From Schleiferia thermophila (GTDB taxonomy: Bacteria > Bacteroidota > Bacteroidia > Flavobacteriales > Schleiferiaceae): 64,000 bases of DNA. Below the pieces are notes generated by a model. That model made no database searches. It saw only the letters and a program-made list of their open reading frames with translations, and was not told where the DNA came from. Both the position numbers and the translations under genes were made by a program. Position 1 is the first letter of the stretch. Every line of letters starts with the position of its first letter. The stretch spans positions 388,513 through 452,512 of the forward strand of contig NZ_QPJS01000001.1 in assembly GCF_003337435.1 (NCBI RefSeq), in the 5' to 3' direction. Positions 9,989 to 42,465 of the stretch are shown in pieces.

Positions 9989-12070
9989 TTACTTTTTGGG
10001 AAGACTTCTGAATTTGCTGATCCCTTCTTCCATCCAAGCGAGGTAGGCTTCTATGTTCGTGTTGTATGCTTCGGGCTTGTTGAGCGGTGTGAGGTCCTCG
10101 TGCCCTATGATCACATAGTAGGGCTGGCTATTGGTGCCATAGTGCTTTGCCTGAAATTCAGCCCAATAATTTCCAATGTTTCTGATTTTCTGACCCAGAA
10201 TTTCTGAGTAATACTGTTGGTCAACTGGCAGAGGTGTTCGTTCGTCTACATAGAGTGAAATGAGCACAAAATCGTTTTGCAATTTGGAAAGCACCCTTGG
10301 ATCGCTCCAGACTTTTTCTTCCATCTTGCGACAGTTGACACATCCCCAGCCGGTAAAGTCCAGTAAAATTGGTTTATTAACTACTTTGGCATATGCCAAT
10401 CCCTTGTCAAAATCATGAAAGCAATTCAATCCATGCGGGCAGCTCTCCGGATGCGCACCTTCGATGTACTCGGACACACTGTGTTGAGCTGTTGTACTCT
10501 TGCCTAAAGGAGCTTCGGTGTACCACATCGGTGGGGTGAGTCCGCTGATCAGCTTTAAAGGGGCCCCCCACAGACCCGGAATTAAATAAAGAGTAAACGA
10601 CAGGGAGATAACTGCCAACATCAGCCTGCCTACTCCGATTTTTTCACTCTTGCTGTCGTGTGGCAAACGGTAGAAACCAAGCAGATAAATGGTCAGCAGT
10701 ATGCCGATGGCTATCCAAATCAAGATGAAGTATTCTCTCAGCAAAATGCCAGACTGCCAAACCAAATCGGCAGTTGAGAGAAACTTGAAGGCCAGTGCAA
10801 GTTCGATAAAGCCGAGGACAACCTTTACACTGTTGAGCCAGCCCCCGGAGCGAGGCAGGGAATTGAGCCATCCGGGAAATGCTGCAAACAGAGTAAATGG
10901 AATGGCCAATGCCAGAGAAAATCCTGTCATCCCGATAAGAGGTCCTTTAATACCACCACTGAAGGCTTCAAAAAGCAATGTGCCAATGATAGGACCGGTG
11001 CAGCTAAAACTGACCAATGCCAGTGTAAAGGCCATGAAAAAAATGCCGATAACACCTCCTCGCTCGCTGGCACTATCCGCCTTATTTACCCAGGACGAGG
11101 GCAAAGTGATTTCAAACGCCCCGAAAAATGAAATGGCAAAAATGACCAGCAGTGCAAAAAACAAAAGATTGACGTATGGATTGGTGGAAAAGGCATTCAT
11201 GGCCGCTGGCCCGGCTAAACGCGTGATGGTGTAAGTAACACCCACATACAACACCATAATGCTTAAGCCATAGATGAGCGCATTGCTGATACCTTGTGCC
11301 CGATTTTGGCTTTGCTTCGTAAAATAGCTTACCGTAAGGGGAATCATAGGAAATACACACGGGGTCAGCAGAGCCGCCAATCCTCCTAAAAAACTAAAAA
11401 TAAACAATCCGGTAAATGAAGATTTTTCCCCCTCTGAAGTAGTGAGCTGAGCTGTTGTGACTTCTTCCGAAACAGCTTCATCAGGAGCCATTGCCATTTC
11501 ATCATCGGCTGAGGTGGTTTCTTCCAGAACTTCTTCAGAGGCTTGAGTATCCCTAGATGCTGCATAGTTGATGGGGTCCTTCTCAACAGGAAGCTGAGTT
11601 TCTTCTTTGGGTTGTGGAGGGACAATCTGAAATTCAAAATCCACAGCAGTGGGTGGCAGGCAGGTCTCATCGTTGCAAACCATGTACTCCAGATATCCTT
11701 TTGCTACAAATGGCTTGCTGCTGAGCATCCGTATCCTTTGTCTGAATTCTGCAGACTTACCGAAATATTTGACTACCATGTTAAAATTGGGGTCAAATTC
11801 TTCTTTTGCCACGCCTTCTTTGACCTTACCGACCAGTTTGTAATCAGCACTTTCTTCAAAATTAAACGAAGTAGGAATGGGGCCACTGCCCACCGGTAGA
11901 GTTGAAGAATACAAATGCCAATCACCTTCTATACGGGCTGTAAAGACCAATTCAGCTTCATTATTTTCTAAATAATTAATTTTGAATCTCCAGCTGACCG
12001 GTGATTTGAAAGCCTGAGCTTGTCCGGCCAGCATCAAGAACAAAAAAACCGCTGTGTTTAAAAATTTCAT
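9989..12070 (-). CDS. dsbD: thiol:disulfide interchange protein DsbD
   Basis: Carries electrons from cytoplasmic thioredoxin across the inner membrane to periplasmic thiol proteins. 693 aa: signal peptide (about 1-20), an N-terminal DsbD-alpha-like beta domain (about 25-150) with a YMVCNDETCLPP Cys pair, a Glu/Ser/Thr-rich linker (about 160-215), eight or so transmembrane helices with LLTPCVFPMIPLT and SFSCTGPIIG (one Cys each), and a C-terminal thioredoxin-like domain with Cys577-Val-Asn-Cys580. All three redox centres are therefore present. It is divergently oriented from ppa. Confidence 0.94.
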   Translation of the reverse strand: MKFLNTAVFLFLMLAGQAQAFKSPVSWRFKINYLENNEAELVFTARIEGDWHLYSSTLPVGSGPIPTSFNFEESADYKLVGKVKEGVAKEEFDPNFNMVVKYFGKSAEFRQRIRMLSSKPFVAKGYLEYMVCNDETCLPPTAVDFEFQIVPPQPKEETQLPVEKDPINYAASRDTQASEEVLEETTSADDEMAMAPDEAVSEEVTTAQLTTSEGEKSSFTGLFIFSFLGGLAALLTPCVFPMIPLTVSYFTKQSQNRAQGISNALIYGLSIMVLYVGVTYTITRLAGPAAMNAFSTNPYVNLLFFALLVIFAISFFGAFEITLPSSWVNKADSASERGGVIGIFFMAFTLALVSFSCTGPIIGTLLFEAFSGGIKGPLIGMTGFSLALAIPFTLFAAFPGWLNSLPRSGGWLNSVKVVLGFIELALAFKFLSTADLVWQSGILLREYFILIWIAIGILLTIYLLGFYRLPHDSKSEKIGVGRLMLAVISLSFTLYLIPGLWGAPLKLISGLTPPMWYTEAPLGKSTTAQHSVSEYIEGAHPESCPHGLNCFHDFDKGLAYAKVVNKPILLDFTGWGCVNCRKMEEKVWSDPRVLSKLQNDFVLISLYVDERTPLPVDQQYYSEILGQKIRNIGNYWAEFQAKHYGTNSQPYYVIIGHEDLTPLNKPEAYNTNIEAYLAWMEEGISKFRSLPKK

Positions 12071-34852: not shown

Positions 34853-36931
34853 ATGAATATACAATATATTACAAAAAACATTCAGATTAAAAACAAAGAT
34901 TTAGAACTATTAAAAACTCACTTTTCTCATTACTTTGATAAAAATGGCAAGTTCGACTTTGTAAAATTTCAAAAAGAATTAGAATCCCAAAATATAGAGC
35001 TCAGTTTTGAAAAAGAAAGCTACGGGCTCGATTGGCTGGGCAAAAGCTATGCACGGCTTTTAGCAAGCGACCCTGCAACAACCCTACTCAAAGCCGATGA
35101 AACACACAATCAAAAGCCAGAAAATGTCAATTCACAGAATTTACTTATAAAGGGCGACAACCTTGAGGTCTTAAAACACCTTGCCAACGCCTACTACGAA
35201 AAAGTAAAGATGATCTACATAGACCCGCCCTACAATACCGGAAATGATGGCTTTGTGTATAACGATGACCGAAAATACACGGTAGAACAATTGCAGGAAC
35301 TTTTAGGCATAGACAAAGAAAGAGCCAAACGAATTTTAGACTTTACCCAGAGTAAAAGTAACAGCCACAGTGCCTGGCTTACCTTTATGTATCCCCGACT
35401 TTACATTGCTAAACAGCTCTTACGAGAGGATGGGGTAATCTTTGTCTCCATTGATGACAATGAGGTAGCACAACTCAGGCTTTTGATGGATGAGGTGTTT
35501 GGGGAGGAGAATTTTGTTGCGAAATTTGATTGGCGTAAAAAAACAGGTGCAAATGATGCTAAAGATATAGCAGTTATAACAGAAAGTATTTTGTTATATG
35601 CAAAAAACAAACATTACACCATTGAAAAAGACATTTGGGGGCGAGATGAAAGGTCTGTAAATAAAAAAAGGTATAAATTATCAGATGAATTTATTGAAGA
35701 ACGAGGTAAATATTATTTGGATACTCTTGACAGAGGTGGTTTACAATATTCAGATTCTATGAATTTTGGTATTGAGGCTCCTGATGGTAGTTTAATTTTT
35801 CCTAATGGTCGTTCAGAGTTTAAAAATGATGGATGGATATGGAAATGGAATAAAGAAAAAATAAAATGGGGAATTGAAAATAAATTTATAGAATTCGTTA
35901 AATCAGAAAAAAGCTCTGGCTCAAAATATACAATAAAATATAAAGTTTATGAGAAGGTAGATAATGAAGGGAAACCGCGTGTTAGATCGGGCAGAGCATT
36001 TACTAATTTAATTACAGAACCTATCAATCAGCAGGGGAATAACGATTTTTCTAAATTATTTGATGGTAATACATATTTTACTAATCCCAAACCTATTGGT
36101 TTAATTAAATATTTAATTAGAACAATAGATAACGACACTTTAACTGTCCTCGACTTCTTCGCAGGCTCCGGCACCACAGGCGATGCGGTAATGCAACTCA
36201 ATGCCGAGGATGGCGGCAACCGTAAATACATCCTTGTACAACTCCCCGAACCTATTGACCCCAAGAAAAACCAAACGGCTTACGATTTTGTCAAAGACGA
36301 ACTCAAAGCTGAGCCAACGATTTTTGAGATTTGCAAAGAACGCCTGATCCGCGCTGCAAAGAAAATCAAAACCGAAACCATTGATAAAAATATTGCCGAA
36401 AAAGAAAAAGAACTGCAACAATTACAGAGTGAATTAAACTTAGAAGAGAGAGATGAAAAAATAGCTATCCTGAAACAAGAGATTGATGCTCTAAACAATC
36501 AAGATCTGGGATTCAAGGTTTTTGAAACCATGCCTATATGGGAAGATTACAATTTTGAAGCCGAAACTTTTGATAGCTCTCAAACACTTTTTGACACCGG
36601 CAAACTTACTGAAGACGATCTAAAAGCTCTTCTCATAACCTGGAAAACCTACGACGGTATGCCCTTGACAGAGGATTTAGAAACCATTACCCTGGATAGC
36701 TACACAGCCTATTACGGCAATGGCAAACTTTATCTTATGCACAAAGGATTTACAACCAATACCCTCAAAGCCCTCTTAGAAAAGATTGACAGCGACAGAC
36801 ACTTCGAGCCCAAAAGCATCATTGCCTTTGGATATCATTTTGAAAGTGCGCGCCTCAGGGAACTGAGTGAGAATGTAAAAAACTATGCCAACAAAAAGCA
36901 TATTGATATAGAGTTCATTATAAGGTATTAG
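34853..36931 (+). CDS. type III DNA methyltransferase (Mod subunit)
   Basis: 692 aa beta-class N6-adenine methyltransferase: the catalytic motif DPPYNTG (Asp124) precedes the SAM-binding FFAGSGTTGD (about 435-444). A target-recognition region lies between them (about 225-430). N-terminal residues 1-90 and the helical Glu/Lys/Gln-rich stretch at about 505-550 are typical of Mod proteins. Mod methylates one strand of an asymmetric site and directs the Res subunit. The target-recognition part is visibly more AT-rich than both flanks, suggesting recombination there. The recognition site cannot be predicted from sequence alone. It is followed by a short non-RM gene rather than directly by res. Confidence 0.95.
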   Translation: MNIQYITKNIQIKNKDLELLKTHFSHYFDKNGKFDFVKFQKELESQNIELSFEKESYGLDWLGKSYARLLASDPATTLLKADETHNQKPENVNSQNLLIKGDNLEVLKHLANAYYEKVKMIYIDPPYNTGNDGFVYNDDRKYTVEQLQELLGIDKERAKRILDFTQSKSNSHSAWLTFMYPRLYIAKQLLREDGVIFVSIDDNEVAQLRLLMDEVFGEENFVAKFDWRKKTGANDAKDIAVITESILLYAKNKHYTIEKDIWGRDERSVNKKRYKLSDEFIEERGKYYLDTLDRGGLQYSDSMNFGIEAPDGSLIFPNGRSEFKNDGWIWKWNKEKIKWGIENKFIEFVKSEKSSGSKYTIKYKVYEKVDNEGKPRVRSGRAFTNLITEPINQQGNNDFSKLFDGNTYFTNPKPIGLIKYLIRTIDNDTLTVLDFFAGSGTTGDAVMQLNAEDGGNRKYILVQLPEPIDPKKNQTAYDFVKDELKAEPTIFEICKERLIRAAKKIKTETIDKNIAEKEKELQQLQSELNLEERDEKIAILKQEIDALNNQDLGFKVFETMPIWEDYNFEAETFDSSQTLFDTGKLTEDDLKALLITWKTYDGMPLTEDLETITLDSYTAYYGNGKLYLMHKGFTTNTLKALLEKIDSDRHFEPKSIIAFGYHFESARLRELSENVKNYANKKHIDIEFIIRY

Positions 36932-36961
36932 TTTTTAGTTTTGAGTTATGAGTTTTGAGTT
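36931..36961. repeat. left arm of an imperfect inverted repeat around the four-helix-bundle gene
   Basis: 31 bases starting at the last base of the mod stop codon and ending one base before the next ATG. It consists of 7-base units of the TTTTGAG/TTATGAG type. Its reverse complement matches 37291-37321 at 25 of 31 positions. Confidence 0.6.
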
Positions 36962-37336
36962 ATGAAAGAAAGTGTTGTTAAAAATAAAAGTTTTGATTTT
37001 GCCCTGAGCATAATAGAATTGTACAAAATTCTGCAAGCTCAGAAAGAGTTTATTTTGTCTAAACAACTATTGAGAAGTGGCACTAGCATAGGTGCAAATA
37101 TTAGTGAGGCATTGGCGGGAGTTAGTAAAGCAGATTTTTCAAATAAAATGGCAATAGCAAGTAAAGAGGCTAGGGAATGTTTATATTGGTTACAGCTGTT
37201 AGAAAAAAGTAATTTGGTAAATTTTGATTTTAAACCTTTTATTAAAGATTGCGAAGAGTTAATAAAAATACTAACAAGTATTGTAAAAACAACTCAAAAT
37301 TCAACATTAAAAATTAAAAACAAAAGTAAAATTTGA
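36962..37336 (+). CDS. four-helix-bundle (S23/IVS-type) protein
   Basis: 124 aa, almost wholly helical, with the family signature SGTSIGANISEA at about 39-50 and a helix with KEARECLYWLQLLEKS near 80. This family was first seen as genes in 23S rRNA intervening sequences, and the related Avd protein serves diversity-generating retroelements; in most genomes the function is unknown. No reverse transcriptase or variable repeat is present here. The gene lies between mod and the AlbA_2 gene, bounded by imperfect inverted heptad repeats; the right repeat forms its last codons (QNSTLKIKNK). It starts at ATG 36962, 30 bases after mod. Confidence 0.85.
   Translation: MKESVVKNKSFDFALSIIELYKILQAQKEFILSKQLLRSGTSIGANISEALAGVSKADFSNKMAIASKEARECLYWLQLLEKSNLVNFDFKPFIKDCEELIKILTSIVKTTQNSTLKIKNKSKI
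37291..37321. repeat. right arm of the imperfect inverted repeat
   Basis: Lies within the 3' end of the four-helix-bundle gene; also 7-base periodic (AACTCAA/AATTCAA units). Pairs with 36931-36961 over 31 bases with six mismatches. Confidence 0.6.
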
Positions 37337-37392
37337 ATGAACTTTGAGAAAATTTAAATTATGTCAACAAAAAATCAGTTGATGGTATTAAA

Positions 37393-38880
37393 ATGAAAAA
37401 GGAATCATCACGTATAGAATACAAAAAATTATATTCCGATGACCTCGATATCGAAAAAGAAGTGGTAGCCTTTCTCAACTATCGCGAAGGTGGCTTTATT
37501 TACATTGGAATTGACGATTCTGGCAAAGTAGTAGGTGTATCTAACACGGATAAAATCATCCTCAAAATAAAAGATCGCATAAAAAACAACATACAACCAT
37601 CTGCCTTGGGACTTTTTGATGTAGTTGAGGAAACCAGAGAAAATAAACCCGTGATTAAAATCATTGTGGCAAGTGGAACAGAAAAGCCATATTTTAAGAA
37701 AAAATATGGTATGACCGAAAAGGGTTGCTTTATACGGGTAGGAACTGCCTCTGAACCCATGCCACAAAAAATAATTGATGAACTCTTTGCCAAAAGAATA
37801 AGAAATTCCATAGGGAAAATAAAATCGCCAAGGCAGGACCTCACCTTTGAACAACTTCGAATCTATTACGAAGAAAAAGGCAAACCATTAAATAAACAAT
37901 TTAAGAAAAACCTTGAATTGCTTACCGAAGATGGGTATCTGAATTATGTTGCCTATCTGCTTGCCGATGAAAATGGAACATCCATTAAAGTTGCAAAATA
38001 TGCAGGGAAAGATAGGGTTAACCTGATTGAAAATACCGAACTTGGATACTGCTCACTCATCAAAGCAACAAAAAATGTGCTGGATAAAATAAACATAGAA
38101 AACAGAGTGTATGCCCGAATTACTCCAAAGGAAAGAATTGAAAAACGGTTATGGCAGCCGGTAGCCTTAAGGGAAGCCATCATCAATGCCATTGTGCATA
38201 ATGATTATACGAGAGAAGTCCCGCCTAAGTTTGAAATTTTTGACGACAGAATTGAGATTACCTCTGCCGGCTCTTTACCCGATTTTTTGTCTGTTGAAGA
38301 ATTTTTCGAAGGCGTTTCAGTACCGCGAAACAAAGAGTTGATGCGAATTTTTAAAGATCTCGAACTGGTAGAACAATTGGGATCTGGACTACCACGGATA
38401 CTACAGTTTTATGGCAGAGATTCTTTTAAATTTACTGATAATTTCACCAGGAGCATCTTTTATGCTGACAAAGAAGTGCTAGAATACCTTAAAAATGAAG
38501 AAAGTGCCGCTCAGGTTACCGAGCATGATACCGACCAAGTTACCGAGCAAGTTACCCCGCAAGATACCCCCCATGATACCCCGCAAGTTACCTCGCAAGT
38601 TACCGACCGAGTTACCGACCGAGTTATCGACCAAGTTACCGACCAAGTTAAAAATTTATTATTAGCAATAGATAGAGAATATACAAGACAAGAATTAATG
38701 ACTATACTTAGTATGAAACACAATCAAACATTTAGAGAAAATTATCTTTATCCAGCATTGAAAAATGATTTAATAGAAATGACTATTCCAGATAAACCAA
38801 ATGATCCAAAACAAAAATACCGCCTTACAGAAAAAGGAAAACAGTTGCAAAAACAACTAAAAAAGCAGACAAAATTATGA
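37393..38880 (+). CDS. AlbA_2 (Schlafen-like) / HATPase regulator-type protein with QVTD repeats
   Basis: 495 aa. N-terminal AlbA_2 DNA-binding domain (about 1-115, EYKK..., FLNYREGGFIYIGIDD, GCFIRVGTA). Central GHKL-type ATPase fold (about 255-360) with REAIINAIVHNDY (N box), SAGSLPDFL and GSGLPRIL (G boxes). A linker of four-residue repeats QVTE/HDTD/QVTP/QVTD at about 374-419, then a winged-helix-like end (about 425-495). Proteins of this build are often misnamed RecG-like helicases; they probably bind nucleic acid and ATP and may regulate. It overlaps res by ATGA, so the two are translationally coupled. Whether it is required for restriction is not known. Confidence 0.85.
   Translation: MKKESSRIEYKKLYSDDLDIEKEVVAFLNYREGGFIYIGIDDSGKVVGVSNTDKIILKIKDRIKNNIQPSALGLFDVVEETRENKPVIKIIVASGTEKPYFKKKYGMTEKGCFIRVGTASEPMPQKIIDELFAKRIRNSIGKIKSPRQDLTFEQLRIYYEEKGKPLNKQFKKNLELLTEDGYLNYVAYLLADENGTSIKVAKYAGKDRVNLIENTELGYCSLIKATKNVLDKINIENRVYARITPKERIEKRLWQPVALREAIINAIVHNDYTREVPPKFEIFDDRIEITSAGSLPDFLSVEEFFEGVSVPRNKELMRIFKDLELVEQLGSGLPRILQFYGRDSFKFTDNFTRSIFYADKEVLEYLKNEESAAQVTEHDTDQVTEQVTPQDTPHDTPQVTSQVTDRVTDRVIDQVTDQVKNLLLAIDREYTRQELMTILSMKHNQTFRENYLYPALKNDLIEMTIPDKPNDPKQKYRLTEKGKQLQKQLKKQTKL
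38512..38649 (+). repeat. in-frame 12-bp tandem repeat in the AlbA_2 gene
   Basis: Eleven full and one half copies of a 12-base unit related to CAAGTTACCGAC, encoding four-residue units (QVTE, HDTD, QVTE, QVTP, QDTP, HDTP, QVTS, QVTD, RVTD, RVID, QVTD). Copy-number change would lengthen or shorten the linker without changing frame. Confidence 0.9.
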
Positions 38881-41744
38881 TGAAAGGTTTTCATTTTGAA
38901 AAAGATTTACCACATCAAAAACGAGCAGTAGAAAGCACGATTGCTGTTTTTGAAAATTTACAAATCCATCAGCCATCCGATGTAGATAAAAATTATATCA
39001 ATCCATCAATTATATGGGAAAATGATATTCAATACAAAAATAACATTAAGCAAATTCAAAGTAATAATGATATCAAAGAGGATTTTAAGAAAAGCAATAT
39101 CATAGACATAATGATGGAAACCGGTACGGGAAAGACCTATACGTACACCAAAACCATTTTTGAACTTAATAAAAACCTTGGTATTTTTAAATTTATTGTA
39201 GTAGTTCCTACTTTATCAATCAAAGCCGGTACCATTAGTTTTTTAAAATCAGAAAACTGTGTTGAGCACTTTAAAGAGCAGTATGGCAAGATATTACATT
39301 TACACATAGTAGAAAGCCAAAAAAGCAGTAAGAGTAAAAGAAACTATCTGCCCCCGTCGGTAAGCAGTTTTGTGAATGCGGGGAGTTACGAAAAAAACAG
39401 CATACAAGTAATGATTATCAATTCCGGTATGATTAACTCAGAAACTATGCAAAAAAGCTTTGATAAAAGTTTGTTTGATAGATATACCGTACCTTTTGAT
39501 GCTTTGGCAGCCACTCGCCCTTTTATGATAGTTGATGAACCACATCGCTTTGGAAAAGACAATAAAACCTGGGAAAATATTCAAAAAATGGAACCTCAGT
39601 TTATATTGAGATATGGAGCTACCTTTCAAAAATACGAAAATCTTATTTATACGCTCACAGCAGTTGATGCCTTCAATAAAAATCTTGTCAAAGGTGTAAT
39701 TGGACATATTACCGAGTTTGAAAGCGGAAAAAATACAATAATTAAATTTATAGACTCAGATGGCATAGAAGCAAGTTTTGAATTAATTGAGAACAATAGG
39801 TCAAAAGCCGTAAAAGTATCAAAAAAAGAAAGTCTTAAAAAAGTTCACCCCGAAATGACCGATTTATTTATTGAAAATTTGAATAAAAGTACAGTTGTTT
39901 TGTCCAATGGATTAGAGCTAAAAAAAGGCGATAAAATCAATCCCTATTCTTATGCAGAAAAATTACAAGAAATAATGATTCAACGAGCCTTACAAAATCA
40001 TTTTAAAATAGAAAAAGAGCTCTTAACAAGAGAAGTAAAAATAAAACCTCTGACTCTTTTCTTTATTGACAACATTGATGAATATCGAAATAAAGATGGA
40101 TATATCCGAAAAACAGTTGAGCAATACATCAAAGCCGAAGTAGAAGAATTGCTTAAAACAGAAAATGATGCTTTTTACAAAGTCTATCTTGAAAAGACAT
40201 TGCTTGACCTTTCGGCAACACATGCAGGATATTTTTCAAAAGATAATACAGAGAAAGATGAAGCCATTGAAAAAGAGATAAACGAAATTTTGCACGATAA
40301 ACAAGCATTGCTCGATTTAAATAATCCCAGACGTTTTATATTTTCCAAATGGACACTACGGAAAGGATGGGACAATCCAAATGTGTTCCAAATTTGTAAA
40401 CTTAGAAACAGTGGCAGCGAAATCTCAAAATTGCAGGAAGTGGGAAGAGGACTCCGTTTGCCTGTAAATGAATACGGAAACCGTGTAAAAGACGAAGAAT
40501 TTTACTTACACTATTTTGTAGATTTTACCGAAGGTGATTTTGTCGATAAATTAGTAAATGAGATCAATGAAAAATCTGGAGCAATTTCTATCGAACAGGT
40601 TCCAGAAAAGTTATCTGAACAAATGATTAAAAAGATTTGTGAGGTATATAAAACCACTGAAGATGAACTTTTACATGTATTGGATGAAAATAATGTGATT
40701 ACCAGAACCAATTCATTTAAACCAGGAGGATTTGATTATATTAAAAAAAACTATCCATTGATATTTGAGGGTGTTAACTCAAATAAAATTCGAAAAACAA
40801 CTGATCCTAAAAAGAAAGTTACAATAAGAACAGAAAAATATCAAGAACTAAAAGAACTATGGGAAAAACTCAATGAAAAAGTGATTCTGGAATATAAATT
40901 TGATAATGAAGCAAGTTTTAAAAATTTACTTTCCGATTTTTTTAAAGAAGAAAAAGATAAATTTTCTTCTGAAAGTATAAACGAAAGAGTCGCAAGAGTA
41001 GAATTTGAAGACGAAAAAGCTATTGTCAAGGATCCAGAATCAATTTATAATCGAAATATTGAAAGTGTTTCAACAATTAAATACAGTGATTTTTTGAAAG
41101 AACTTTCAAAAATTATAAACGTTAATATTGCAACTTTACATCATTCTATTAAAGAAGCAGAAATAGATATCAATAAATATCTTAATCAGAAAATTTTGAG
41201 AATAATAAAACAGAACTTTGATAATTTTTTAATGGCACAAGCAATTGAGAAATACACAATAGAATACAAAAAGACTACTAATACTATTCATCCAACAAAA
41301 ATTACTGACAATAATGGTAAAGTGCTTACCGAAATTTCAGCCTCGGATATTGGTATTTTATTTTCGGATGAATCTGTTGCTTCCAATTACCTTTTTGAAC
41401 AAGCTTATTATGATTCAGAATTGGAAAAAATAAATATTACAACAAATATAAAAGAAGTAGTAGTATTTACTAAAATTCCGAAAAATTCAATTAAAATTCC
41501 AGTTGCAGGAGGTAAAAGTTACACACCTGATTTTGCTTTTGTTTTGGAAAGTAAGGATGGTAATAAAAAATTACATCTTATCATTGAAACTAAAAATGTT
41601 GAAGACAAAAAAGAACTTCGTGAAGAAGAAAAAATTAAACTAAAACATGCTGAAAAGTTTTTCGGTGAAAACGTGAAAATTCATTTCAAAACACAATTGA
41701 AAAATGATGATTTGTTAAAAATAATTAAAGAAATAAAAAAATAA
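38877..41744 (+). CDS. type III restriction enzyme (Res subunit)
   Basis: 955 aa SF2 helicase-nuclease. Walker A METGTGKTYT at about 80-89, DEPH box VDEPHRFG at about 219, motif III-like RYGATFQ, motif VI region QEVGRGLRLP near 520. The C-terminal nuclease shows PDF and ETK (about 883 and 903) with the spacing of a PD-(D/E)xK site. It translocates/switches after meeting Mod-bound sites and cleaves unmethylated DNA. ATG overlaps the AlbA_2 stop. Composition is AT-rich throughout, like the rest of the island. The gene is intact. Confidence 0.95.
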   Translation: MMKGFHFEKDLPHQKRAVESTIAVFENLQIHQPSDVDKNYINPSIIWENDIQYKNNIKQIQSNNDIKEDFKKSNIIDIMMETGTGKTYTYTKTIFELNKNLGIFKFIVVVPTLSIKAGTISFLKSENCVEHFKEQYGKILHLHIVESQKSSKSKRNYLPPSVSSFVNAGSYEKNSIQVMIINSGMINSETMQKSFDKSLFDRYTVPFDALAATRPFMIVDEPHRFGKDNKTWENIQKMEPQFILRYGATFQKYENLIYTLTAVDAFNKNLVKGVIGHITEFESGKNTIIKFIDSDGIEASFELIENNRSKAVKVSKKESLKKVHPEMTDLFIENLNKSTVVLSNGLELKKGDKINPYSYAEKLQEIMIQRALQNHFKIEKELLTREVKIKPLTLFFIDNIDEYRNKDGYIRKTVEQYIKAEVEELLKTENDAFYKVYLEKTLLDLSATHAGYFSKDNTEKDEAIEKEINEILHDKQALLDLNNPRRFIFSKWTLRKGWDNPNVFQICKLRNSGSEISKLQEVGRGLRLPVNEYGNRVKDEEFYLHYFVDFTEGDFVDKLVNEINEKSGAISIEQVPEKLSEQMIKKICEVYKTTEDELLHVLDENNVITRTNSFKPGGFDYIKKNYPLIFEGVNSNKIRKTTDPKKKVTIRTEKYQELKELWEKLNEKVILEYKFDNEASFKNLLSDFFKEEKDKFSSESINERVARVEFEDEKAIVKDPESIYNRNIESVSTIKYSDFLKELSKIINVNIATLHHSIKEAEIDINKYLNQKILRIIKQNFDNFLMAQAIEKYTIEYKKTTNTIHPTKITDNNGKVLTEISASDIGILFSDESVASNYLFEQAYYDSELEKINITTNIKEVVVFTKIPKNSIKIPVAGGKSYTPDFAFVLESKDGNKKLHLIIETKNVEDKKELREEEKIKLKHAEKFFGENVKIHFKTQLKNDDLLKIIKEIKK

Positions 41745-42090: not shown

Positions 42091-42465
42091 ATGCCGCATT
42101 CATTTAACAGAATATGGATACATGCCATTTGGTCGACGAAAGAGAGGTTGCCTTTGATTGATTCTACTGTTGAGAAGGAAGTCTATCAGAATTTATCAGA
42201 GCAGTTTCGCGAATTGGGATGTCCGGTTAGAATCATCAATGGCATGTCAGATCATGTTCATTGTTTGTTTTTGTTAAATCCTCAGAAATCAATTGCAGAA
42301 GTTATCAAACAAATTAAAGGTAGCAGTTCATATTACATCAACAAAAAGAATTTAATTGACGGGCGATTTGCATGGCAGACTGGATATGCGGCTTATTCGG
42401 TATCGGAATCAGTCGTTGAAAGTGTGTATCAGTACATAAAAAACCAAAAGCAGCATCACAGGTGA
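42091..42465 (+). CDS. IS200/REP-associated Y1 transposase, C-terminal tail frameshifted
   Basis: 124 aa of the Y1 (HUH) transposase family. Seen: FNRIWIHAIWSTKERLPLI at the start, the HUH metal motif DHVHCLFLL near residue 50, the KQIKGSSSYYINK segment and the catalytic Tyr region near YQYIKNQKQHHR. The frame stops at TGA 42463, but the -1 frame continues to a stop at 42525-42527 with KSFQQVCDALDRIKKL, the expected tail after HHR in this family. So the gene either has a frameshift or a natural early stop. It is bracketed by two pairs of palindromes that are its probable substrates. Confidence 0.8.
   Translation: MPHSFNRIWIHAIWSTKERLPLIDSTVEKEVYQNLSEQFRELGCPVRIINGMSDHVHCLFLLNPQKSIAEVIKQIKGSSSYYINKKNLIDGRFAWQTGYAAYSVSESVVESVYQYIKNQKQHHR

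What the first reader, a model, noticed from the sequence alone, without database searches (positions are those of the whole stretch)
34853..41744. Type III restriction-modification operon with two extra genes between mod and res
Mod and Res are normally adjacent. Here a four-helix-bundle gene and an AlbA_2/HATPase gene lie between them, and the AlbA_2 gene is translationally coupled to res (ATGA at 38877-38880). AlbA_2 (Schlafen-like) plus GHKL ATPase plus winged helix is a regulator- or effector-like build. The coupling suggests it is a functional part, for example controlling Res or adding a defence layer. This is the best candidate for an undescribed system here; the alternative is a chance insertion that has kept the frame overlap.
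Basis: partly seen in the sequence, partly recalled or inferred. Interest (0 to 1): 0.65.

Follow-up and report, generated by a model that had tools for sequence, protein, structure and literature searches.

The report
Schlafen-like gene inside restriction operon
A gene resembling the RNA-cutting Schlafen proteins of animal antiviral defence sits directly ahead of the DNA-cutting gene of a bacterial restriction system, a place where different bacteria have repeatedly put such genes, which suggests a back-up alarm for when a virus disables the restriction enzyme.

Summary
The four genes are as described: mod, a four-helix-bundle (IVP) gene, AlbA_2-GHKL-wHTH, and res, the last two overlapping by ATGA. 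The premise that mod and res are normally adjacent fails: 41 of 60 mod>res loci in the window's phylum (39 of 58 unselected) and 12 of 25 in Pseudomonadota hold genes in the gap, chiefly known or candidate defence or toxin families. AlbA_2-HATPase genes are 10 of 89 unselected slot genes against 0 of 144 flanking genes, fall into 7 groups under 30% identity, and need 12 changes for 13 bearers on the Res tree. The window gene's closest relatives are mostly elsewhere: 36 of 78 lie in type I RM loci (0 of 40 random stretches), 15 directly before hsdR. Its first domain folds like SLFN/SAMD9 tRNases and keeps both essential glutamates. Best reading: an embedded, PrrC-like back-up effector guarding the restriction subunit; activity and trigger are inferred, not shown. 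The IVP gene is a separate IVS-like insertion. The same domain build is already reported beside BREX, so this is a new variant of a known kind.

The parts
34853..36931 (+). mod, type III DNA methyltransferase, 692 aa
   Evidence: N6_N4_Mtase and T3RM_EcoP15I_C; PADLOC MTase_III 623.8 bits
36928..37324 (.). IVS-like element around the IVP gene: ends 36928-36961 and 37291-37324 are imperfect inverted repeats built of about 7-nt units; probably a separate insertion
   Evidence: 34-nt arms, 79% complementary; 7-nt tandem array 36930-36965; ends pair in the predicted RNA fold, z -2.35, 1 of 100 shuffles as good
36962..37336 (+). IVP / four-helix-bundle gene, 124 aa
   Evidence: PF05635 91.6 bits, TIGR02436 106.3 bits
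37393..38880 (+). AlbA_2 (Schlafen) - GHKL ATPase - winged-helix gene, 495 aa
   Evidence: Pfam domains; AlphaFold2 model mean pLDDT 82.6, pTM 0.51; fold matches
37402..37761 (+). AlbA_2 domain, residues 4-123, with E4, E9 (and D42) in the places of SLFN13 E205, E210 (and D248)
   Evidence: residue match read off the HMMER alignment
38224..38412 (+). HATPase_c_4 (GHKL-type) domain, residues 278-340; E261, N265, H269, N313, G332 invariant in 40 of 40 close and 13 of 13 slot relatives
38515..38650 (+). in-frame 12-nt tandem repeat (11.3 copies) coding a VTDQ-type linker between GHKL domain and winged helix
   Evidence: linker lies at pLDDT under 50 (residues 380-412)
38641..38829 (+). winged-helix domain, residues 417-479
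   Evidence: PF21247; matches the C-terminus of Fic protein 4rgl, Z 12.9, 71 aligned, rmsd 1.0
38877..38880 (+). ATGA stop/start overlap of the AlbA_2 gene and res
   Evidence: read
38877..41744 (+). res, type III restriction subunit, 955 aa
   Evidence: PRK15483 1009.6 bits; ResIII and RE_endonuc

Best explanation
The AlbA_2-GHKL-wHTH gene is an accessory defence gene lodged in the mod-res gap, a slot that type III operons of this phylum (and Pseudomonadota) fill and refill with defence cargo. Proposed mechanism: the protein is made together with Res (ATGA overlap) and held silent, by contact with the RM complex or by the state of its GHKL ATPase and winged helix; when a phage blocks or removes Res, or produces a related signal, the Schlafen-type domain is released and cuts tRNA, stopping growth and phage replication. 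That is the logic of PrrC in the type IC operon EcoprrI, built from a Schlafen instead of a PrrC nuclease. Shown: gene order, overlap, repeated recruitment before R genes of type III and type I systems, fold, conserved Glu pair and ATPase motifs. Inferred: RNase activity, target, trigger, silencing.
For: Enrichment in the slot (10 of 89 against 0 of 144; 5 loci against 0.044 expected). Repeated recruitment: 12 changes for 13 rows on the Res tree, 11 forced by starred branches; 7 AlbA_2 groups. Sister Res carry other cargo: L140 (AlbA_2) with L161 (AAA ATPase), L186 with L142 (GmrSD), L135 with L137 (DUF488). Position: in 36 of 78 close relatives outside type III the locus holds hsd genes, 26 with two or more of hsdR/M/S; hsdR is the next gene on the same strand in 15 of 73 that have a next gene, 12 of them within 100 nt and several overlapping by 4 nt; L024 is hsdS-AlbA_2-hsdR; controls 0 of 40 random 20-kb stretches and 0 of 87 Res loci. 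Fold: residues 2-135 match the SAMD9 tRNase domain 9o0d (Z 10.8, 131 aligned, rmsd 3.1) and SLFN11 7fex (Foldseek E 1.8e-4). E4 and E9, aligned with the two glutamates whose mutation abolished SLFN13 activity (passages), are present in 38 of 38 close relatives that reach that far. The same build (Schlafen RNase + minimal histidine kinase + wHTH) is listed as back-up effector beside BREX in at least 1017 taxa (section 35 read). PrrC and PARIS are described as RM guardians (passages).
Against: No activity, tRNA target or trigger is shown. The third catalytic carboxylate of SLFN13 is D42 here but is D or E in only 6 of 38 close relatives (K in 26); in two slot relatives (L140, L186) E9 is Q. The winged helix and ATPase would also suit a regulator. 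Eight of 11 Res in the window's clade have no such gene, so Res does not need it. 42 of 78 close relatives have no hsd gene in the fetched stretch. Gene calls in the loci are crude (longest ORFs).
Confidence: 0.5

Rival explanations
1. It is a regulator of the operon: the winged helix binds DNA, the ATPase senses nucleotide or methylation state, and the protein times res expression so that methylation comes first; the AlbA_2 domain only binds nucleic acid.
For: C-terminal winged helix of MarR-like fold; overlap with res; a review passage says that translation of res of EcoP15I is delayed until modification is present.
Against: It sits in the middle of the operon, not at its head. Eight of 11 close Res do without it. 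The slot holds other cargo with no regulator look (YhcG nuclease, GmrSD, Fic). The Glu pair of the RNase site is kept in 38 of 38, which binding alone does not ask for. Some slot relatives (L135 399 aa, L140 387 aa) end soon after the ATPase domain with no winged helix in Pfam.
Confidence: 0.25
2. It is a stand-alone defence or selfish gene that merely hitch-hikes: the mod-res gap is a tolerated and transcribed landing site, deletion of which is costly, and there is no functional link to Res.
For: Fast turnover of unrelated cargo in the slot (16 changes of the filled/empty label); Fic, RhuM, YhcG, HipA and transposase-like genes are all found there; the IVP element and an IS200-like gene lie close by.
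Against: AlbA_2 genes are before hsdR too, in 15 of 73 close relatives with a next gene, and absent from 144 genes just outside mod/res; a mere landing site would not obviously pick the same neighbour in two RM types.
Confidence: 0.2
3. Chance insertion in one lineage that kept the overlap.
For: Only the window, L002 and L004 carry this AlbA_2 subgroup in type III loci, and the closest Res relatives lack it.
Against: The enrichment and repeated recruitment above.
Confidence: 0.05

Closest known systems
Schlafen RNase + minimal histidine kinase + wHTH back-up effectors beside BREX and BREX-related loci (PMC12839542, section 35 part 1 read)
   Same: Same three-part build in the same order; encoded within or beside a modification-based defence locus; listed together with other cargo seen in our slots (GmrSD, OLD ATPases, PD-(D/E)XK nucleases).
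   Different: There beside BREX core genes; here between mod and res of a type III RM operon, and in close relatives before hsdR of type I. The term 'type III restriction' does not occur in that paper's main text.
PrrC in EcoprrI (type IC RM; PMC12707154 and PMC3874165, passages)
   Same: Nuclease gene embedded in an RM operon; tRNA-cutting guardian set off when the RM enzyme is inhibited (for PrrC); L024 shows hsdS-AlbA_2-hsdR.
   Different: No PrrC-type ATPase domain in the window protein (Pfam): GHKL ATPase instead; RM type III; activity and trigger not tested.
Defence genes embedded in RM loci: TgvAB in a type I cluster (PMC11411939, passages); Payne et al. 2024 preprint (seen only as a citation); PADLOC HEC and PDC models
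   Same: Unrelated defence genes inside an RM operon. Slot genes of other loci match HEC-01A/B, Ppl, PDC-S02 and PDC-M59A.
   Different: The window AlbA_2 protein has no PDC or HEC match in PADLOC-DB 2.0.0, only three weak Argonaute-group matches of at most 29.1 bits.
SLFN11/13/14, SAMD9 tRNase domains
   Same: Fold of residues 1-135 and the Glu pair.
   Different: One lobe only, fused to GHKL ATPase and winged helix; the Asp position varies.
3lmm (DIP2311, Corynebacterium diphtheriae), uncharacterized
   Same: AlbA_2 plus HATPase-like region, Z 21.8 over 319 residues though rmsd 16.0; profile E 2.7e-30.
   Different: 15-19% identity; no function known from these calls.

Membership tests
Type III restriction-modification system | Mod with N6/N4 methylase and type III C-terminal domain | tested here: met
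Type III restriction-modification system | Res with SF2 helicase and PD-(D/E)XK-type endonuclease domain | tested here: met
   ResIII, RE_endonuc; PRK15483
Type III restriction-modification system | methylation and ATP-dependent cleavage | not testable with these tools
   needs methylome or enzyme assay
Schlafen-GHKL-wHTH back-up effector (as beside BREX) | AlbA_2 + histidine-kinase-type ATPase + winged helix in one protein | tested here: met
Schlafen-GHKL-wHTH back-up effector (as beside BREX) | lies within or next to core genes of a modification-based defence system | tested here: met
   between mod and res; enrichment
Schlafen-GHKL-wHTH back-up effector (as beside BREX) | three-carboxylate RNase site as in SLFN13 (E205, E210, D248) | tested here: inconclusive
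   E4, E9, D42 present in the window protein; Asp position not kept in relatives: D/E in 6 of 38
Schlafen-GHKL-wHTH back-up effector (as beside BREX) | tRNA cleavage on infection | not testable with these tools
   no assay
PrrC anticodon nuclease | gene embedded in an RM operon | tested here: met
PrrC anticodon nuclease | PrrC-type ATPase/nuclease protein family | tested here: not met
   Pfam finds AlbA_2, HATPase_c_4 and Fic-like_C only; so not a PrrC, at most works like one
PADLOC embedded candidates (PDC/HEC) | match to a PDC or HEC model | tested here: not met
   E up to 1e-3
23S rRNA intervening sequence (IVS/IVP) | IVP protein family | tested here: met
   PF05635 91.6 bits, cut-off 33.8
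23S rRNA intervening sequence (IVS/IVP) | complementary ends around the gene | tested here: met
23S rRNA intervening sequence (IVS/IVP) | lies inside a 23S rRNA gene | tested here: not met
   lies between mod and the AlbA_2 gene

The most novel reading that the evidence does not exclude
AlbA_2-GHKL-wHTH proteins are a general class of RM guardian, shared by type I and type III systems and usually sited one step ahead of the restriction subunit gene: a Schlafen tRNase kept silent by the restriction subunit and freed when a phage inhibits it, so that the eukaryotic Schlafen/SAMD9 antiviral nuclease and the PrrC guard strategy meet in one protein. The IVS-like IVP element in the same operon would be a second, unrelated parasite of the transcript.
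Probability: 0.3. Interest if true: 0.7.

Novelty: new variant of a known kind. Interest (0 to 1): 0.52.

Why it matters
If right, restriction systems of two types carry the same built-in alarm next to the gene most worth guarding, and the alarm uses a nuclease fold shared with human antiviral Schlafen and SAMD9 proteins. It also shows that the mod-res gap of type III operons is a cargo slot: reading what stands there in many genomes is a cheap way to find new defence genes, and explains intervening genes that look odd in a single genome.

Tried and rejected
Rejected: 'mod and res normally adjacent' (41 of 60 and 12 of 25 loci have genes between). Rejected: one-clade accident. Rejected: IVP as a part of the system; it is also present in one other slot of 85 mod>res loci (L169), near L122's mod, at a second place of the own genome with a stop inside, and in 1 of 40 random stretches. 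Called PARIS-like in my notes, then withdrawn: the AAA_15 + DUF4276 pairs of L145, L159 and L168 fit HEC-01A/B best, AriA more weakly; L161's ATPase fits NsnB best.

Against or limiting: the flank control is not free of defence genes: 6 of 147 flanking genes have a homologue among slot genes (mostly OLD-type ATPases, one GmrSD-like, one fragment), and GajA-type matches occur in 4. Family tallies show only the first 25 families, so a family with one or two flank members could be hidden there; the zero for AlbA_2 in flanks rests on my own profile, which found the same 12 slot genes as Pfam. The hsd profiles were built from the AlbA_2 loci themselves, starting from Pfam-checked members. The AlbA_2 tree has very long branches for L135, L169, L191, L199, so their placing is unsure. 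Both trees are quick searches. Reverse test with the other AlbA_2 family (551-557 aa; 5 of 249 and 20 of 247 genomes): of 28 loci, 4 have type III genes on the expected side (two of them the loci already known), 2 have a mod-like gene downstream, 5 have hsd genes, 17 show neither in the short flanks, so it is not tied to RM only. Pseudomonadota kinship is not told by the tool.

Rows left out: of the Res places, seven partial ones at G090, G141, G177:C129, G190, G246:C13, G358 and G386 were not fetched; G190; G915 and the second of G839. Of the 89 loci, 13 showed no mod (mostly contig ends) and 16 had res before mod (5 of them with a gene between, none AlbA_2). L125, cut at a contig end, has an AlbA_2 gene two genes before res and is not counted. 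One search kept 80 of 118 relatives.

Papers: full-text searches for this gene arrangement found none that describes an AlbA_2/Schlafen gene between mod and res; preprints and most subscription journals are not held, and Taboada et al. 2025 and Payne et al. 2024 were seen only as citations. One search (Prevotella RM paper, passages) gave nothing.

Full report
What is there. Four open frames on the + strand match the finding: mod 34853-36931, a 124-aa IVP gene 36962-37336, a 495-aa AlbA_2-HATPase-winged-helix gene 37393-38880, and res 38877-41744, with the ATGA overlap at 38877-38880. An IS200-type transposase gene follows at 42091-42465.

Is the gap unusual? I looked for Res in 395 genomes of the window's phylum (61 with a match), 395 of its class (32, partly the same genomes) and 299 Pseudomonadota (32), fetched 60, 27 and 32 stretches and called genes with profiles made here. 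With the window and L004 that makes 89 loci of the window's phylum: 60 mod>res, 16 res>mod, 13 without a visible mod. Of the 60, 41 have real genes in the gap (39 of 58 without the two selected ones); in Pseudomonadota 12 of 25.

What fills it? Pfam over 92 slot genes: Fic 13, AlbA_2 12, HATPase_c_4 12, DUF1016_N and YhcG_C 10, AAA_21 7, RhuM 6, DUF4276 3, IVP 2, GmrSD, HipA_C and HEPN 1 each, among 45 families of which 25 are shown. PADLOC: PDC-M59A 11, PDC-S02 10; L145, L159, L168 pairs are HEC-01A/B and the big partner of L140 is Ppl-like. Of 147 genes just outside mod and res, the commonest family is DUF4391 (12), then HTH_3 (6) and some OLD-type ATPases; 6 of 147 have a homologue among slot genes.

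AlbA_2 in the slot. Without the window and L004: 10 of 89 slot genes against 0 of 144 flanking genes, Fisher p 4.8e-5; 5 of 42 mod>res loci of the phylum sample against 0.044 expected. By locus 8 of 58 and 2 of 25. The proteins form 7 groups under 30% identity: window/L002/L004; L128/L130/L211/L221 (both phyla); L140/L186; L135; L169; L191; L199 (tree). On a tree of 83 Res the AlbA_2 label needs 12 changes for 13 rows, 11 of them forced by starred branches, and the filled/empty label 16; gains and losses cannot be told apart. Sister Res carry different cargo (L140/L161, L186/L142, L135/L137). In L140, L186 and L191 the AlbA_2 gene follows a large homologous protein; in L140 this has PHP and AAA/SMC matches, in L191 it is only 22-31% identical to the others. 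Junctions are tight: gaps of -4 to 0 to the next gene in L140, L186, L191, L199, -14 in L004, about 60 nt in L211 and L221, longer in L130.

The window's own subgroup. A scan of 84,980 species genomes kept 80 of 118 relatives. Only L004 (Bacteroidales MAG, mod-AlbA_2-res, no IVP) and L002 (Melioribacter MAG, AlbA_2 then a broken res, contig cut) lie before res. In the other 78, 36 stretches hold hsd genes, 26 at least two of hsdR/M/S, and hsdR is the next gene on the same strand in 15 of 73 with a next gene, 12 within 100 nt; L024 reads hsdM-hsdS-AlbA_2-hsdR (Pfam checks). The same profiles find hsd genes in 0 of 40 random 20-kb stretches and 0 of 87 Res loci. The row nearest to the window trio in the AlbA_2 tree, L046, lies in a type I locus. 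So this gene belongs to a family that frequents both type I and type III operons. In the window's Res clade 3 of 11 have it.

What the protein looks like. The model (mean pLDDT 82.6, pTM 0.51) matches 3lmm over most of its length and, over residues 1-135, the SAMD9 DNA/tRNase domain structures 7ksp and 9o0d (Z 11.0 and 10.8) and SLFN11. A profile of the slot proteins finds SLFN11, SLFN8/13 and SLFN14 structures at E 1e-12 to 1e-10. In those alignments the window's E4, E9 and D42 stand at the SLFN13 triad E205, E210, D248 (my reading with an offset of 13 for the chain numbering). E4 and E9 are kept in 38 of 38 close relatives that reach that far; position 42 is D 5, E 1, N 5, A 1, K 26. In the paper E205A and E210A were fully inactive (passages). 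GHKL residues E261, N265, H269, N313 and G332 are invariant in 40 of 40 and 13 of 13. The winged helix is nearly that of a Fic protein (4rgl, 49% identity over 71 residues), joined by a repeat linker whose length differs between relatives.

How it most likely works. PrrC, embedded in the type IC operon EcoprrI, cuts tRNA-Lys when T4 Stp inhibits the enzyme, and a review calls PrrC and PARIS RM guardians (passages). Schlafen RNases fused to a minimal histidine kinase and wHTH are listed as back-up suicidal effectors in at least 1017 taxa beside BREX (section 35 part 1 read). I therefore read the window gene as such an effector embedded in a type III operon, released when Res is blocked. The arrangement, recurrence, fold and Glu pair are shown; nuclease activity, trigger and silencing are inferred. 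A regulator of res and plain hitch-hiking remain open.

The IVP gene. Its element has complementary ends of about 7-nt units that pair in the predicted RNA (z -2.35). The other copy in the genome, which has a stop, has 51-nt arms of the same kind (z -3.2), and L169's copy too (z -5.1); L122's was judged by eye. This is the layout of a 23S rRNA intervening sequence outside rRNA (that layout recalled, not from a call), so I treat it as a separate insertion.

Novelty. Embedded defence genes in RM loci (TgvAB) and the domain build are known; the combination with type III mod/res and the shared place before hsdR and res were not found in the searches named under Tried and rejected. Hence a new variant of a known kind.

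Noticed in passing
window 36928-37324; L204 1356-1906; L169 8390-8870; L122 about 10660-11110: IVP (four-helix-bundle) genes lie in elements whose ends are inverted arrays of about 7-nt repeats that pair into a terminal stem, an IVS-like layout in intergenic gaps of operons.
   Followed up: partly
L140 931-4706, L186 2932-6704, L191 1005-5080: An AlbA_2-HATPase gene directly after a large protein (865-938 aa, homologous in all three; PHP and AAA/SMC matches and Ppl-like in L140), all between mod and res: possibly a two-gene cassette.
   Followed up: partly
type III loci: The mod-res gap holds many other cargo genes: YhcG/DUF1016, Fic, RhuM, HEC-01A/B, GmrSD, a PDC-M59A gene of about 340 aa beside a small Fic gene.
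   Followed up: partly
window 38515-38650: In-frame 12-nt tandem repeat coding a VTDQ-type linker; the same linker and winged helix occur in Fic protein 4rgl, and the repeat is shorter in L002 and L004.
   Followed up: no
flanks of type III loci: DUF4391 is the commonest gene just outside mod/res: 12 of 147 flanking genes.
   Followed up: no
L011 11365-15168: A hsdR frame with an inserted IS200-like Y1_Tnp stretch at residues 702-787.
   Followed up: no
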